Assembly (NCBI GenBank): GCA_024276495.1
Contig: JAJRXC010000012.1
Span: forward strand, 1-39,017
Length of the DNA stretch: 39,017 nt
Direction of reading: 5' to 3'
Origin: Actinomycetes bacterium
GTDB taxonomy: Bacteria; Actinomycetota; Acidimicrobiia; Acidimicrobiales; Aldehydirespiratoraceae
Shown: positions 20,821 through 37,379 of the stretch, one piece after another
Layout of the letters: each line of letters starts with the position of its first letter
How positions within the stretch are numbered: the first letter of the stretch is position 1
Notes under the pieces: generated by a model
The model's database searches: none
What the model was told of the DNA's origin: nothing
The model's input: only the letters and a program-made list of their open reading frames with translations
Made by a program: the position numbers and the translations under genes

Positions 20821-21612
20821 TCAGTTCCCGCCCAGCTCCCGGGAGCGGGCGGTCGCGGCGGCGACGACGCGCCCGACGAGCCCGATGAGGTCGTCGTCGG
20901 CGAACACCGCGAGGCCCGCCGCGGTGGTGCCTCCCGGCGAGGTGACGTTGGCCCGCAGCACGGCCGGGTCCTCGCCGGACTCCACGAGGAGGGTCGCCGC
21001 GCCGAGCAGTGTCTGACGAACGAGGGCGTCGGCGACGTCGGGCGCCAGTCCCTCCGCGATCCCGGCGGTGACGAGGCCTTCGGCCAGGTGGAAGACGTAG
21101 GCGGGGCCGGAACCGGAGAGGCCGGTGACCGCGTCCAGCTCCGGCTCGGTGACGGTGACCACGGTGCCCACGGCCGAGAGGATCGCCGCGGCCCAGGCGA
21201 GGTCGTCGTCGGTCGCCGCGGTGCCACCGGCGATGGCGGCCGCCCCTCGCCCGACGAGAGCGGGGGTGTTGGGCATGCAGCGCACGACGGCGGGGCCGGC
21301 GCCGAGGCCGGCCTCGATGGTGGCGGTTCTCACGCCGGCCGCGATCGACAACACCCGGGGCACACGGGCGGCGACCAGGGCGGGGAACACCAGGGGCACG
21401 ATGTCGGGCTTGACGGCGATGACCGCGTCGATCTCGTCGAGGGGCTCGTCGCCGATGGACAGCCCCGGGAGGCGCACGGCGAGCTCGGCGCGGCGGTCGT
21501 CGGCGGGTTCGACCACGTGGAGCTCGTCGGCGCGTGCCCAGCGCGTCTCGATCAGCCCGCCGAGCAGGGCCTCGGCCATCTTGCCGCCACCGATCATCTG
21601 GAGTTTCGTCAC
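20821..21612 (-). CDS. proC: Pyrroline-5-carboxylate reductase
   Basis: This 263-residue enzyme reduces 1-pyrroline-5-carboxylate to proline with NAD(P)H. It shows an N-terminal Rossmann motif (LQMIGGGKMAEALLGGL), AVKPDIVPLV, VRCMPNTPALVGRG, and the C-terminal signature LSGSGPAYVF...TSPGGTTAAGL. The GTG at 21612 starts directly before the Rossmann strand and is preferred to an ATG at 21693. The upstream region holds a promoter-like sequence. The downstream partner is the SAM hydroxide adenosyltransferase gene. Confidence 0.96.
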   Translation of the reverse strand: MTKLQMIGGGKMAEALLGGLIETRWARADELHVVEPADDRRAELAVRLPGLSIGDEPLDEIDAVIAVKPDIVPLVFPALVAARVPRVLSIAAGVRTATIEAGLGAGPAVVRCMPNTPALVGRGAAAIAGGTAATDDDLAWAAAILSAVGTVVTVTEPELDAVTGLSGSGPAYVFHLAEGLVTAGIAEGLAPDVADALVRQTLLGAATLLVESGEDPAVLRANVTSPGGTTAAGLAVFADDDLIGLVGRVVAAATARSRELGGN

Positions 21613-21706
21613 GTCCGGAACCGTAGGCCGCGAAGCGCCGGGTGACCCGATGGGAACGTGATCAGCGCACTTCCCCGAGCGCCTCGCTCCCACCGGGTCG
21701 AGAACG

Positions 21707-21734
21707 AATCTACATGAGATACCACAGAATGCAA
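21707..21734 (-). promoter_or_regulatory. Putative proC promoter
   Basis: On the minus strand TTGCAT (21734-21729) and TAGATT (21712-21707) are separated by 16 bases, a reasonable sigma-70-like pair. They lie about 95-120 bases upstream of the proC start, in a locally AT-richer stretch that stands out from its surroundings. Confidence 0.45.
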
Positions 21735-21750
21735 GCAGCCCTCGCGAGGT

Positions 21751-22215
21751 TCACCCGTTGAACCGGCTGGCGAACGCGAGCCGCATCGCCGGCCGGAAGA
21801 TGAGCTCGACCGCGGCCCACATCGATCCGAGAACACGATCGAGCTCCGCTTCGTTCACCGCCGCCACCGGGAGTGAACCACGAAGAAAGATCGCGTCCTC
21901 CTCGCCGATCTCCGCATGCAGCCCGGTCAGCTTGCGGTTGCGTCGCAGAAGCTGTTCGAACACCTCGGCACGATTCTCCTCCGGGGCCGGCATGAGATAC
22001 GTCTCGAACTGGAACGTGCGTTGCCGCAACGTCCACCACGCGGTCCAGACGTCCTTCTCCTCGCCTCGCAGACGGACGAACCAGCGCACCAGGTCGTCGT
22101 CGGATCGCTCGACCGCCTCGATCGCCGGGTTCTCCTTCATCGCCCGAGCCAACCAGGCGTCGATGCGGTGTTCGAGGGCGGCGAGCTCCTCGGGGGACGC
22201 GGGTGGCGACTGCAC
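21751..22215 (-). CDS. YbjN-domain-like protein downstream of the MshA-type gene
   Basis: This 154-residue soluble protein has an N-terminal helix (EELAALEHRIDAWLARAMKEN) and an alpha/beta domain with WTLRQRTFQFETYLMP, LLRRNRKLTGLHAEIGEEDAIFLRGSLP and DRVLGSMWAAVELIF. This is the pattern of the YbjN fold, related to type III secretion chaperones. Function in actinomycetes is not established. From memory, Mycobacterium also has a YbjN-like gene next to mshA. The GTG at 22215 lies five bases after the mshA stop, so the two are probably co-transcribed. Confidence 0.8.
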   Translation of the reverse strand: MQSPPASPEELAALEHRIDAWLARAMKENPAIEAVERSDDDLVRWFVRLRGEEKDVWTAWWTLRQRTFQFETYLMPAPEENRAEVFEQLLRRNRKLTGLHAEIGEEDAIFLRGSLPVAAVNEAELDRVLGSMWAAVELIFRPAMRLAFASRFNG

Positions 22216-22220
22216 CCGGC

Positions 22221-23432
22221 TCAGGCGAGACAGTCGACGGGTTCGCGCGCACCGAGATCGTCGTAGACGCGCCGCAGACGGGCCGCCATCGTCGTCCAGG
22301 TGTACGACCTTGCCGCGTCGGCAGCCCGACGCGAGAGCTCGTCGGCGAGAATCGGCGAGTCGAGGATGCGCCGGGTCGCCGCCGCGTAGTCCGCCGGGTC
22401 ACGACCGGGGATGCGAAAACCGGTGCGGCCGTGATCGACGAGGGTGCGCAACCCACCGACGTCGGAGGCGACGACCGGTGTGCCGCAGGCGGCCGCCTCG
22501 AGCGCGACCAGACCGAACGACTCGCTGCGAGACGGGACCAGACACACGTCGGCGGCCCGGTAGTAGGTCGACAACACGTGGTGGGGCTGGGGCGCGATCA
22601 TCGTGACGCGATCGCCGAGACCACGATCGGCGATCAACTTCTCGAGCTTGCGAACCTCTTCGCCGCCCTCGAGCCCACTGGCTCCTCCGACGATGAGCAG
22701 CCGGGCATCGTCGCGACCCAGTTCGGCCAGGGTCTCGACCGCGACGTCGGCGCCCTTGAGCGGCTGGATGCGGCCCACGAAGATGAGCAGCGGTTCGGTC
22801 CCCATGTCGAGGGCGCGCCGGGCACCGGCCTGCGAGCCCGGCGAGAAGAACGCGTGGTCGACACCGGGGGGGACGACCTCGACACGGTCGGGGTCGGCGC
22901 CGTAGTGCGCGACGAGCTCGCGGAGCTCGGTGACGGAGTTCGCGGTGATCACGTCGGCGCAGCGGATCACGTCGGTCTCGGCATCGACCCGGCGCTGCGG
23001 TTCGGCGTCGCCCGTCTCGGCCTTCACCCTCGCGAGGGTGTGGAACGTGGCCACCAGCGGCAGCTCCAACTCGTGCTTCAGGCGGTGGCCGGCCACACCG
23101 GAGAGCCAGTAGTTCGCGTGGATGATGTCGACCGGGTTCCGGGCCAGGTGATCCCCGACGACCCGGGTGAAGTCGTCGACGACGTCGGGCAGCGCCTCCT
23201 TGGCCAGCCCGACGGGACCGGCATCGACGTGCACGACCCGGAACCCGGGTTCGACGTCGACGAGGTCCGGCAGATCGTCGGCCCACCGACGCACATAGAC
23301 GGTGGCGTCGGCGCCGGCCTGGGCCAGCGACGAGACGAGCTCGCGGATGTAGACGTTCATCCCACCCGCGTCGCCGTGCCCGGGTTGGACCAGGGGGGAC
23401 GTGTGGAGGGACAGGACGGCGACGCGGCTCAC
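22221..23432 (-). CDS. mshA: MshA-type GT4 glycosyltransferase
   Basis: This 403-residue GT-B glycosyltransferase resembles D-inositol-3-phosphate glycosyltransferase, which makes the first mycothiol intermediate from UDP-GlcNAc and inositol 3-phosphate. The N-terminus RVAVLSLHTSPLVQPG and DAGGMNVYIREL are characteristic. The C-terminal domain has VGRIQPLKGADVAVE and the nucleotide-sugar motif PSRSESFGLVALEAAACGTPVVA. The GTG at 23432 has GGAG at proper spacing; an ATG at 23465 would add 11 residues. Other mycothiol genes are absent from this window, so the mycothiol role is inferred from similarity. A sucrose-phosphate-synthase-like GT4 activity is the alternative. Confidence 0.85.
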   Translation of the reverse strand: MSRVAVLSLHTSPLVQPGHGDAGGMNVYIRELVSSLAQAGADATVYVRRWADDLPDLVDVEPGFRVVHVDAGPVGLAKEALPDVVDDFTRVVGDHLARNPVDIIHANYWLSGVAGHRLKHELELPLVATFHTLARVKAETGDAEPQRRVDAETDVIRCADVITANSVTELRELVAHYGADPDRVEVVPPGVDHAFFSPGSQAGARRALDMGTEPLLIFVGRIQPLKGADVAVETLAELGRDDARLLIVGGASGLEGGEEVRKLEKLIADRGLGDRVTMIAPQPHHVLSTYYRAADVCLVPSRSESFGLVALEAAACGTPVVASDVGGLRTLVDHGRTGFRIPGRDPADYAAATRRILDSPILADELSRRAADAARSYTWTTMAARLRRVYDDLGAREPVDCLA

Positions 23433-23499
23433 GTTCGACTCCAACGCCGCCGCGAGGCGGAACATTCCCCGCCGATGCAGCCGACGGTGGAGGCCGGCG

Positions 23500-24027
23500 T
23501 CATCTCGGAGCCGCCGGCGCCTCACCCGCCGCGATCCGGCGGGCGAGCTCGTCGTTGAGAAGGTCGATGGTGGCGTGCAGCGACTGACGGCTCGTCGAGA
23601 CCCGTTGTTCGAAGTCTCGCACCGCGATCATCGCGGCGGACAAGGCGTCGTCCCCCAGGGTCGCGACCTCGGTCATCACCGATGGGCCGACGGCGTCGTC
23701 GAGCACTTCGGTGAGGGGCCCCACGACCTCGTCTGGTGGGTCGAGCTCCTGATCGACCCGGCCGGAACCGGGAGCCCGCACGCCGTCGCTGAGCAATTCG
23801 GGGAGGCGGGCCACGAGATCAGCGAGGTCGCCGCCCCCTCCCTCGGCTCGGCGCTCGATCTCGGCGGCCAGGACGTCGACGCGGCCCTGGGCGAGACGTC
23901 GAACGAACGACAGCCCGTTCTCGAGGTCGGTGCACTCGACTCGCATCGCTCGAAGCGCGTCGGTGCTCGTCTCGGTGATTCCGACGAGATACCCCGGATC
24001 GAGGACTCGTTGCAGATCAGGGATCAT
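23500..24027 (-). CDS. RsiG-like anti-sigma factor candidate with two c-di-GMP signature motifs
   Basis: This 175-residue protein is predicted to form two long helices. The first contains E36-x3-S40-x2-R43-x3-Q47-x3-D51, exactly the E(X)3S(X)2R(X)3Q(X)3D signature that binds cyclic di-GMP in Streptomyces RsiG. The second contains E140-x3-S144-x2-R147-x3-H151-x3-D155, the same spacing with His for Gln. A variable Gly/Pro-rich stretch joins them. RsiG is an antiparallel coiled-coil anti-sigma that sequesters WhiG when loaded with c-di-GMP. No sigma gene is in the window. The ATG at 24027 gives the full motif-bearing protein. It lies directly upstream of mshA on the same strand. Confidence 0.82.
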   Translation of the reverse strand: MIPDLQRVLDPGYLVGITETSTDALRAMRVECTDLENGLSFVRRLAQGRVDVLAAEIERRAEGGGGDLADLVARLPELLSDGVRAPGSGRVDQELDPPDEVVGPLTEVLDDAVGPSVMTEVATLGDDALSAAMIAVRDFEQRVSTSRQSLHATIDLLNDELARRIAAGEAPAAPR

Positions 24028-24087
24028 CGCTGGCTGACTCGACCTTCGGAACTCGACCTCTCGGGTCGAAACGGACGACCGTGGAGC

Positions 24088-24348
24088 CTATCGGGACTCG
24101 ACGGACGCGTCGGATCCGCCCGACACGGGCGGAAGGACCGCCACCTCGTCGTCGGCGCCGACCGCATGGTCGCGGTCGACCGCGTCGCCGTTGCACCACA
24201 CCGTCGCCGTCTCGAGAACTCCTTCGAAAACCGGCCCGTAGCGGGCCACGGCACCGTCGAGCACCTCGCCGACCGTGGCGCCGGGGAGCTCGTCGTCGCG
24301 GGTGCCGGCCGCCTCGCGGGCCGAGGCGAACAAGCGGATTCGAGCCAT
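24088..24348 (-). CDS. MoaD/ThiS-family sulfur-carrier protein with residues beyond the Gly-Gly
   Basis: This 86-residue ubiquitin-like protein starts MARIRLFASAREAAGTRDDELPG, a MoaD-like opening, and has ATVWCNGDAV and DDEVAVLPPVSGG near the end. MoaD carries a C-terminal Gly-Gly thiocarboxylate for molybdopterin synthesis. Here eight residues (SDASVESR) follow the Gly-Gly before the TAG. The carrier would therefore need trimming before activation, or the protein has another function. The ATG at 24348 is the natural start; the frame further upstream is a shadow. It is divergent from the phosphatase gene. No other molybdenum-cofactor gene is present. Confidence 0.8.
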   Translation of the reverse strand: MARIRLFASAREAAGTRDDELPGATVGEVLDGAVARYGPVFEGVLETATVWCNGDAVDRDHAVGADDEVAVLPPVSGGSDASVESR

Positions 24349-24405
24349 GACGACCACGGTACCGGCCCGCCGGCGGGCATCCCCGGCACTGTCGGCGCGC
24401 TTCGG

Positions 24406-24411
24406 TACCGT
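24406..24411 (+). promoter_or_regulatory. Putative -10 element of the histidine phosphatase gene
   Basis: TACCGT lies ten bases before the ATG at 24422, implying a leader of only a few bases. No strong ribosome-binding site is present in the gap. The 73-base divergent space to the MoaD-like gene holds little else. Confidence 0.4.
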
Positions 24412-24421
24412 CGCCCTGACC

Positions 24422-25015
24422 ATGTTGAACGTGCTCGTCGCCCGCCACGGGCAATCGGAGTGGAACGCGTTGGGGCGCTGGCAGGGCCAGGCGGACCCTC
24501 CCCTCTCCGCGCTCGGGCGAGCCCAGGCCGCGGGTGCGGCGGCCCGGTTGGGCACGTTCGACGCCGTGATCGCGAGCGACCTCGATCGGGCCCTCACCAC
24601 CGCGATGATCATCGCCGAGCACATCGGTGTCGGGCCGGTCCTCGTCGATCCGGCCTTTCGTGAGCGTCACGCCGGCGCCTTCGAGGGCCTCACCCGGGCG
24701 GAGATCGACGAGCGCTTCCCCGGCCACCTCGACGCCGGCATCTGGCCGGCGGGTTGGGAGCACGACGATGACGTCCACGACCGCGTCATCGAGGCGCTGG
24801 GCCGGGTCGTCGAACAGGTCCGTGCCGGGCAGGTGCTCGTGGTCTCCCACGGCGGGGTGATCTACAGCCTCGAGGGTCGGCTCGGTGCCCGCTACGACCG
24901 CATCGCCAACCTCGGCGGCCGCTGGTTCCACTACGACGGCACCACCTGGCGGTTGGGCGAGCGGGTCCAGCTGTCCCCCGACGACGTCACCATCGAGAAC
25001 CAGGACATCGTCTAG
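24422..25015 (+). CDS. Histidine phosphatase family protein (phosphoglycerate-mutase-like)
   Basis: This 197-residue member of the histidine phosphatase superfamily has the phosphate pocket ARHGQSEWN with H9 as the phosphohistidine, SDLDRALTTAMIIAEHIG, the acid in RERHAGAFEGLTRAEI, and VVSHGGVIYSL supplying the second His. It is shorter than glycolytic dPGM and more like broad phosphatases of the CobC/GpgP type. In actinomycetes similar enzymes remove phosphate from glucosyl-3-phosphoglycerate; the substrate here is not predictable. It is followed two bases later by the YgjP-like gene. Confidence 0.9.
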   Translation: MLNVLVARHGQSEWNALGRWQGQADPPLSALGRAQAAGAAARLGTFDAVIASDLDRALTTAMIIAEHIGVGPVLVDPAFRERHAGAFEGLTRAEIDERFPGHLDAGIWPAGWEHDDDVHDRVIEALGRVVEQVRAGQVLVVSHGGVIYSLEGRLGARYDRIANLGGRWFHYDGTTWRLGERVQLSPDDVTIENQDIV

Positions 25016-36173: not shown

Positions 36174-36233
36174 CCCATAAGACCAGTTTAGAAGCGATTT
36201 TCTGTATGTTGGCCTCTCGTGGGTATACGGTTA

Positions 36234-36255
36234 TGCCGCGAATCTGCCGCGAATC
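36234..36255 (+). repeat. Tandem 11-base repeat before the integrase
   Basis: TGCCGCGAATC occurs twice in direct, abutting tandem, ending three bases before the AGGAGG ribosome-binding site of the integrase. Such repeats next to an att site are typical of arm-type binding sites for tyrosine integrases or of an operator controlling int. Function inferred. Confidence 0.7.
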
Positions 36256-36269
36256 TCAGGAGGTCGACG

Positions 36270-37379
36270 GTGGGAACGATGCGGCAGCGAAGCGAAGGGA
36301 CCTGGGAGCTCACCGTCTCGGCCGGCCGCGACGCGTCGACGGGCTCGTACCGCCGGGTCATCCGAACGGTCCGCGCGTCGACAAAACGCGACGCGAAGGC
36401 AGCGTTGTCGGAGTTGGAGGTCGAGGTGCGGTCGGGCCGCGTCGGACCCGACGACGTCACTCTCGCCGAACTGCTCGAGCGATGGATGGAGCACCTTCGT
36501 TCCAAGGGCCGGTCCGAGAACACTCTCTACGGCTACCGGCGTTACATCGAACGGGACCTGGTCCCTGCGCTCGGTTCAACCAGACTCTCGAAGCTGACGG
36601 TGCTCAACGTCGACCGCTTCTACGACTCCCTGACCGACCGGGGGCTGGCCCCGGCCACCGTGAGGCAGGCGCACGCCATCCTCCGAGCGGCGCTCAACCA
36701 GGCCGAGCGCTGGGGCCTCGTCAGGCGCAACGTGGCGAAGCTGGCCTCGCCCCCGGCGCAACCCCAACGCGAGCAACAGACTCCCACCGTCGAGGAGGTC
36801 CGCTTGTTGCTCGCGACCGCCGCGGAGATCGACGCTCTGCTCGGAACCTACGTTCGGCTCGTTGCCGCAACGGGCATGCGCCGTGCCGAAGCCTGCGCCG
36901 TTCAGTGGGGTGACCTCGACGCCGACGCGGAGGTGCTCACCATTCGCCGCAGCCACGTCGCGGTGCCAGGAACTCGAACCGACAAGACAACCAAGACTCG
37001 ATCGACACGCACCGTGCGGCTCGACCCATCGACGTCTGAGGAGCTGCTCCGACTCCGCTCGACCCTCCCGGCCATGCTCCGGGCGTCTGGCCAGTATGTG
37101 TTCACGAGCGACGGCCGACTGCCTTGGCGTCCCGACACGGTCTCGACGCGGTGGGCTCGCGTCCGCGATCGTGCAGGGGTCGGCTCAGCGATTCGGCTGC
37201 ACGACCTTCGCCATTGGCAAGCCACTCAATTGCTCGATGCGGGGGTCCCGTTGCCCACGGTGGCAGCGCGACTCGGCCATGCGAGCGGCGCTACAACCAT
37301 GAAGATCTATGCCCATCGGACGATCGGTGCGGACGAACAAGCCGCCGTAGTCGTGGGCAACGCCCTCGACAACCCCTGA
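36270..37379 (+). CDS. int: Tyrosine-family site-specific integrase
   Basis: This 369-residue recombinase has an N-terminal AP2-like DNA-binding segment (TWELTVSAGRDASTGSYRRVIRTVRA), a SAM-like core-binding domain (TLAELLERWMEHL...NTLYGYRRYIERDLVP) and the catalytic domain. R204 (GMRRAE), a Lys in DKTTKTRSTRTV, H311 and R314 (HDLRHWQAT), H337 (LGHAS) and nucleophile Y347 (KIYAH) are all present, so it should be active. The GTG at 36270 is chosen because AGGAGG lies six bases upstream. A GTG at 36219 would start before the tandem repeats. Its position beside tRNA-Lys marks a prophage, ICE or genomic island whose body lies to the right. Confidence 0.95.
   Translation: MGTMRQRSEGTWELTVSAGRDASTGSYRRVIRTVRASTKRDAKAALSELEVEVRSGRVGPDDVTLAELLERWMEHLRSKGRSENTLYGYRRYIERDLVPALGSTRLSKLTVLNVDRFYDSLTDRGLAPATVRQAHAILRAALNQAERWGLVRRNVAKLASPPAQPQREQQTPTVEEVRLLLATAAEIDALLGTYVRLVAATGMRRAEACAVQWGDLDADAEVLTIRRSHVAVPGTRTDKTTKTRSTRTVRLDPSTSEELLRLRSTLPAMLRASGQYVFTSDGRLPWRPDTVSTRWARVRDRAGVGSAIRLHDLRHWQATQLLDAGVPLPTVAARLGHASGATTMKIYAHRTIGADEQAAVVVGNALDNP

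What the first reader, a model, noticed from the sequence alone, without database searches (positions are those of the whole stretch)
23500..24027. RsiG-like protein with both c-di-GMP motifs, one with Gln to His
Both helices carry the E-S-R-Q/H-D spacing of the RsiG signature. Streptomyces RsiG is studied with WhiG in sporulation; here it occurs in what looks like a deep-branching lineage, next to mshA. The His variant in the second motif may change c-di-GMP stoichiometry or affinity.
Basis: partly seen in the sequence, partly recalled or inferred. Interest (0 to 1): 0.72.

Follow-up and report, generated by a model that had tools for sequence, protein, structure and literature searches.

The report
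Twin-motif RsiG anti-sigma factor, Acidimicrobiia
This gene encodes an ordinary relative of RsiG, a protein that uses the signalling molecule c-di-GMP to hold a sigma factor (WhiG) inactive, and the histidine that looked unusual in it is the commonest form in its bacterial class.

Summary
The ORF at 23500-24027 (-) carries both RsiG signatures in full: E36-S40-R43-Q47-D51 and E140-S144-R147-H151-D155. It is a twin-motif RsiG: Pfam RsiG E 4.8e-26, and the predicted antiparallel coiled coil finds the solved RsiG-WhiG complex as its only clear fold match. The same genome has a WhiG orthologue with the three c-di-GMP-contacting residues, 26 GGDEF matches and 16 EAL matches. RsiG and WhiG are both present or both absent in 278 of 295 genomes of the class.

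The novelty mostly falls. Twin-motif RsiG in Acidimicrobiales, and His at the stacking position of motif 1, are published, with the argument that His can stack as Gln does. His in motif 2 is no peculiarity of this protein: of 144 readable RsiGs of the class, motif 2 has His 76, Phe 26, Tyr 22, Gln 20; none is Gln/Gln. That class-wide trend is a modest new detail. WhiG's regulon here is unknown; a scan for its classical promoter showed no enrichment.

The parts
23500..24027 (-). rsiG, twin-motif RsiG-type anti-sigma factor, 175 aa
23875..23922 (-). c-di-GMP motif 1, ENGLSFVRRLAQGRVD, residues 36-51, Gln47 at the stacking position
   Evidence: lies in predicted helix 22-61
23563..23610 (-). c-di-GMP motif 2, EQRVSTSRQSLHATID, residues 140-155, His151 at the stacking position
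   Evidence: lies in predicted helix 126-166; His in the 14 best-matching named loci
22221..23465 (-). mshA-like glycosyltransferase downstream of rsiG on the same strand; start placed by me at the ATG of MFRLAAAL, 34 bases after the rsiG stop
   Evidence: conserved neighbour in 72 of 80 related loci
24091..24624 (-). ORF with a ThiS domain upstream of rsiG on the same strand (domain at residues 96-170, so the true gene is probably shorter); conserved context

Best explanation
The gene encodes a monomeric, twin-motif RsiG. Its two long helices form an antiparallel coiled coil, each giving one E-x3-S-x2-R-x3-[Q/H]-x3-D motif. At high c-di-GMP, a c-di-GMP dimer bound across the two motifs lets RsiG clamp the WhiG sigma factor (contig C4) and keep it from RNA polymerase; when c-di-GMP falls, WhiG is released and transcribes its genes. 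His151 most likely does what Gln does, stacking on a guanine. Shown here: family, motifs, predicted fold, presence of WhiG with its c-di-GMP-contacting residues, presence of GGDEF and EAL proteins, co-occurrence of RsiG with WhiG across the class. Inferred from the Streptomyces and Rubrobacter work: c-di-GMP binding, sequestration of WhiG, 2:1 stoichiometry. Unknown: the WhiG regulon. Flagella and type IV pili are the obvious candidates because both clusters are present, but no promoter evidence supports either.
For: Pfam RsiG 4.8e-26; PDB sequence match to RsiG 1.8e-12; model with mean pLDDT 89.4, helices 22-61 and 126-166; Foldseek: the only four chains with E <= 0.001 are RsiG of 6pfv/6pfj; VIA-align Z 13.9 over 156 residues, rmsd 4.5, next unrelated row 8.1. 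WhiG orthologue: TIGR02479 273.6 bits against a cut-off of 189.6, 9.1e-94 to WhiG of 6pfj with K57, G61 and R62 identical (residue roles). The two other sigma factors over that cut-off lack the set: E-T-R and K-F-Q at these three places. 26 GGDEF and 16 EAL matches. RsiG and WhiG over 295 genomes of the class: 186 both, 8 RsiG only, 9 WhiG only, 92 neither, Fisher 1.7e-55. RsiG and GGDEF: 172 both, 22 RsiG only, 31 GGDEF only, 70 neither.
Against: Nothing here measures binding. Co-occurrence was not corrected for shared ancestry or incomplete assemblies; WhiG was counted only at about E <= 1e-65, a line that I drew after seeing the list and that drops 9 genomes with weaker matches. 22 of 194 RsiG-positive genomes have no GGDEF match at E <= 1e-20. 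No enrichment of the sigma-28/WhiG consensus in the genome: 24 sites against 28 for the reversed control.
Confidence: 0.92

Rival explanations
1. It is an RsiG by descent, but the His in motif 2 weakens the second c-di-GMP site, so the protein holds one c-di-GMP or responds only at higher concentration.
For: The stacking residue does differ from S. venezuelae. The two single-motif proteins compared in the paper differ about twofold in Kd, weaker for the His protein.
Against: E, S, R and D of both motifs are intact, and the paper assigns guanine recognition to D and R and ribose contacts to S and E. Authors argue that His can stack as Gln does. His in motif 2 is the commonest state in the class, 76 of 144, and is kept in the 14 best-matching named loci, which is not how a damaged site behaves.
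Confidence: 0.12
2. RsiG here acts on the flagellar-cluster sigma factor (contig C40, beside flgK/flgL-type genes) rather than on WhiG.
For: That sigma factor also passes the FliA/WhiG model, 192.3 bits against 189.6, and sits among flagellar genes.
Against: It has E and T in place of K57 and G61; it scores far lower against WhiG of 6pfv (1.9e-38) than the C4 protein (1.7e-93); in the class, RsiG tracks flagellin much more loosely (52 both, 142 RsiG only, 4 flagellin only, 97 neither) than WhiG.
Confidence: 0.04
3. A chance helical protein that happens to carry the motif.
For: Weak matches to other helical proteins exist, for example ribosome hibernation factor at E 0.3 and 0.22.
Against: PF22802 at 4.8e-26, PDB match at 1.8e-12, and 54-79% identity in the 14 best-matching named loci.
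Confidence: 0.005

Closest known systems
RsiG of Streptomyces venezuelae (6pfj, 6pfv), twin-motif monomer
   Same: Two motifs on two helices of an antiparallel coiled coil, linker between them, WhiG partner in the genome.
   Different: Stacking residues Gln/His instead of Gln/Gln; 31-33% identity in the structural alignment; sits beside an mshA-like gene; no indication of a sporulation role was looked for or found.
Twin-motif RsiG of Acidimicrobiales (3 of 4 species in PMC8325347)
   Same: Named relatives of the window protein are labelled Acidimicrobiales or Acidimicrobiia; same twin-motif type.
   Different: The individual sequences of that paper were not seen (its supplement was not open to me), so no residue-by-residue comparison.
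Single-motif RsiG of Rubrobacter and Thermoleophilia (7lq2-7lq4)
   Same: Motif 1 helix matches (E 0.0006-0.0014); both Gln and His occur at the stacking place.
   Different: Those are short homodimers with one motif; the window protein has two motifs in one chain.

Membership tests
RsiG, twin-motif | Two E-x3-S-x2-R-x3-[Q/H]-x3-D motifs in one chain | tested here: met
   Residues 36-51 and 140-155, all five positions of each
RsiG, twin-motif | Match to the RsiG profile PF22802 | tested here: met
   4.8e-26, 90.7 bits against 27, two stretches
RsiG, twin-motif | Antiparallel coiled coil of two long motif-bearing helices joined by a linker | tested here: met
   Predicted model, mean pLDDT 89.4; best structural match RsiG of 6pfv, Z 13.9
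RsiG, twin-motif | Cognate WhiG with the c-di-GMP-contacting K57, G61, R62 | tested here: met
   Contig C4:10069-10740; identical residues in the alignment to 6pfj (roles)
RsiG, twin-motif | Gln at the stacking place of motif 2, as in the published logo (as worded in the text) | tested here: not met
   His151 here; but the text counts Q/H as the motif for motif 1 and this is not a stated condition of membership
RsiG, twin-motif | Binds a c-di-GMP dimer | not testable with these tools
   Needs purified protein
RsiG, twin-motif | Binds and inhibits WhiG in a c-di-GMP-dependent way | not testable with these tools
   Needs purified proteins or genetics
RsiG, single-motif homodimer | One motif per chain | tested here: not met
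   Two motifs in one chain

The most novel reading that the evidence does not exclude
In this class the c-di-GMP clamp of RsiG has been rebuilt: motif 2 has largely exchanged Gln for a ring (His, Phe or Tyr), giving an asymmetric clamp with its own threshold, and in one group of genomes with His/His RsiG and no strong GGDEF match the switch has been uncoupled from home-made c-di-GMP and is fed by another nucleotide, an outside source, or is locked in one state.
Probability: 0.07. Interest if true: 0.65.

Novelty: new member of a known kind. Interest (0 to 1): 0.25.

Why it matters
[quoted passage not shown] If the genomes lacking strong GGDEF matches truly make no c-di-GMP, they would test what the switch listens to. 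For the window protein itself the value is a correct name and a warning that its His is not a special feature.

Tried and rejected
Regulon by promoter consensus: TAAA-N15-GCCGATAA with up to 2 mismatches gave 24 sites in the genome and 28 for the reversed-pattern control, so no enrichment. A closer scan of 60 kb of contig C40 with spacers of 14 to 16 and up to 3 mismatches, printing sites within 250 bases upstream of a called gene, gave three intergenic sites with 3 mismatches and none with 2 or fewer; the gene calls used there were rough and some were wrong. Two of the 24 sites lie in the window (C110:37625 with one mismatch, 36111 with two); I saw no convincing gene behind either.

Output by co-occurrence: over the 295 genomes RsiG goes with PilT (158 both, 36 RsiG only, 21 PilT only, 80 neither) and less with flagellin (52, 142, 4, 97). 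Within the 203 genomes with GGDEF the PilT link weakens (140, 32, 19, 12; p 0.018) and the flagellin link is not significant (p 0.12); 28 of the 186 genomes with RsiG and WhiG have neither marker at my thresholds. So neither organelle is singled out. No correction for relatedness was made.

One-His-one-Gln rule: the first sequences suggested that one motif always has His when the other has Gln. The larger set has 21 His/His, so it was dropped.

A broad 22-sequence alignment could not seed a scan of named genomes; a narrower one did, but its pattern demands Gln in motif 1, so those 80 loci were not used for motif 1 counts.

Full report
What is there. The ORF 23500..24027 on the minus strand encodes 175 aa. 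Its two motifs, ENGLSFVRRLAQGRVD and EQRVSTSRQSLHATID, fit E-x3-S-x2-R-x3-[Q/H]-x3-D at every fixed position, with Gln47 and His151. Pfam assigns RsiG (PF22802, 4.8e-26), and the best solved relative is S. venezuelae RsiG (1.8e-12). NCBIfam has no significant match.

Fold. AlphaFold2, from an alignment of the window protein with 58 unchanged translations of related loci, gives mean pLDDT 89.4 with two long helices, 22-61 and 126-166, each holding one motif, and a less certain linker, about 54-69 in the blocks covering residues 81-100. The only four PDB chains with Foldseek E <= 0.001 are RsiG chains of the RsiG-WhiG-c-di-GMP complex. VIA-align gives Z 13.9 for 6pfv and 8.1 for the next unrelated entry; that tool warns that helical proteins can reach such values by arrangement alone, so the sequence matches carry the identification.

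Partner and messenger. The genome (4.33 Mb, 111 contigs, 97% complete) has three sigma factors over the FliA/WhiG cut-off. One, on contig C4, matches WhiG of 6pfj at 9.1e-94 and keeps K57, G61 and R62, the residues that touch c-di-GMP in the solved complex. By my reading of the sequence and reading frames it lies between a xerC-like recombinase and rpsB; no profile was run on these neighbours. The other two differ at these places. There are 26 GGDEF and 16 EAL matches. Contig C40 carries flagellar genes (MotB, a flagellin-like protein, FlgK, a sigma factor, FliW, FlhA, FliP, FliM) and, on the same contig, type IV pilus genes (PilM, a PilB-like ATPase with an MshEN domain, a second ATPase of that family, a prepilin-like protein) mixed with GGDEF proteins, one of them GGDEF-EAL.

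Distribution. In 295 genomes of the class, RsiG was found in 194 and WhiG in 195, counting matches at about 1e-65 or better; 9 further genomes with matches between 1e-50 and 1e-60 were left out, a line drawn after seeing the list. Both occur in 186, neither in 92, RsiG alone in 8, WhiG alone in 9. The class is unnamed in that tool; that it is Acidimicrobiia is inferred from the named relatives, most of whose titles say Acidimicrobiia or Acidimicrobiales. In 396 genomes of the phylum RsiG was found in 246.

The His. I read 147 RsiG loci of the class, taken from the 154 listed best matches of the 194 positive genomes (the window's own left out). 144 gave a clear reading of both stacking places; two had no recognisable motif 2, and one, L274, was misread by the script and dropped. 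Pairs (motif 1/motif 2): Q/H 55, Q/F 23, H/H 21, H/Q 20, H/Y 20, H/F 3, Q/Y 2. So motif 2 is His 76, Phe 26, Tyr 22, Gln 20, and Gln/Gln is absent. 84 of these loci have all eight E, S, R and D residues; the others depart at one or two, most often Glu to Asp in motif 1 or a changed final Asp. Among 80 named loci, chosen by a pattern that requires Gln in motif 1, motif 2 reads His 54, Phe 13, Gln 9, Leu 2 in 78 readable ones; the Gln cases include four Streptomyces, a Kineococcus and a Kineosporiaceae genome. Of the 30 best-scoring loci of the phylum search, 22 are twin-motif (19 Q/Q, 2 H/L, 1 H/Q) and 8 single-motif; 19 of the 30 belong to one genus, so that sample is narrow. On a quick tree of 186 twin-motif proteins with the stacking residues masked, Gln against other residues at motif 2 needs at least 8 changes. 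The place is evolutionarily labile, and His in the window protein is the local norm.

What is published. I read the abstract, passages and five sections (5, 10, 13, 14, 15) of PMC8325347, not its supplement. It reports twin-motif RsiG in 3 of 4 Acidimicrobiales species; that the motifs are well conserved with the one exception that Gln in motif 1 is often His, suitable for the same stacking; and that a His-bearing single-motif RsiG binds c-di-GMP. It does not mention His, Phe or Tyr in motif 2 in the sections read. Searches of the held library for RsiG with WhiG and c-di-GMP, RsiG with Acidimicrobi, and WhiG with Acidimicrobi gave 16, 2 and 4 papers; of these I opened passages only of PMC13232838 and PMC4255298 and saw the rest as listings. 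The 2020 structure paper on S. venezuelae RsiG was not held and not read.

Role. In Streptomyces the switch controls sporulation and in Rubrobacter type IV pili. Here the regulon could not be found: the classical promoter is not enriched and no close match stands before the flagellar or pilus genes examined. WhiG may use a shifted promoter in this class, or its targets lie elsewhere.

Against the simple picture. 22 of 194 RsiG-positive genomes have no GGDEF match at E <= 1e-20. 18 of them are in my fetched set: 13 are H/H, 3 H/Q, 1 Q/Y, 1 unreadable. This does not touch the window's own genome, which has many.

Verdict. A correct find of an ordinary twin-motif RsiG, with a working WhiG/c-di-GMP context, and a modest class-wide observation on motif 2.

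Noticed in passing
L313:5710-6231 (-), genome G394, phylum search: A short RsiG with two His-type motifs only 85 residues apart; its halves are 27/49 identical (19/64 aligned in the window protein), and both resemble a single-motif RsiG (25/52 and 27/60). Another listed member of its family code (G599) has a short single-motif protein. It looks like a second, independent internal duplication. The genome has six PF22802 matches.
   Followed up: partly
Genomes of group f35 and a few others, for example L052, L057, L060, L068, L113: RsiG with intact His/His motifs in genomes without a GGDEF match at E <= 1e-20.
   Followed up: partly
window 20821-25012: Gene order proC, ybjN-like, mshA-like, rsiG, thiS-like on one strand with a phosphoglycerate-mutase-type gene on the other; at least one of these five marker genes is found near rsiG in 74 of 80 related loci, the mshA-like gene in 72.
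   Followed up: yes
G000 contig C40, 20001-40000 (L083): Type IV pilus genes mixed with GGDEF-HDOD, PAS-GGDEF and GGDEF-EAL proteins; the PilB-like ATPase has an MshEN domain. That MshEN domains can bind c-di-GMP is recalled for the domain; a paper read here names MshE as a c-di-GMP target.
   Followed up: no
L199, L203, L161, L198: Record titles say Bifidobacterium breve or Acidobacteria, although the RsiG and its pattern resemble those of Acidimicrobiia loci; probably mislabelled assemblies.
   Followed up: no
window 36220-37379 (+): A site-specific integrase-like ORF near the end of the window, possibly part of a mobile element; judged by eye from the translation.
   Followed up: no
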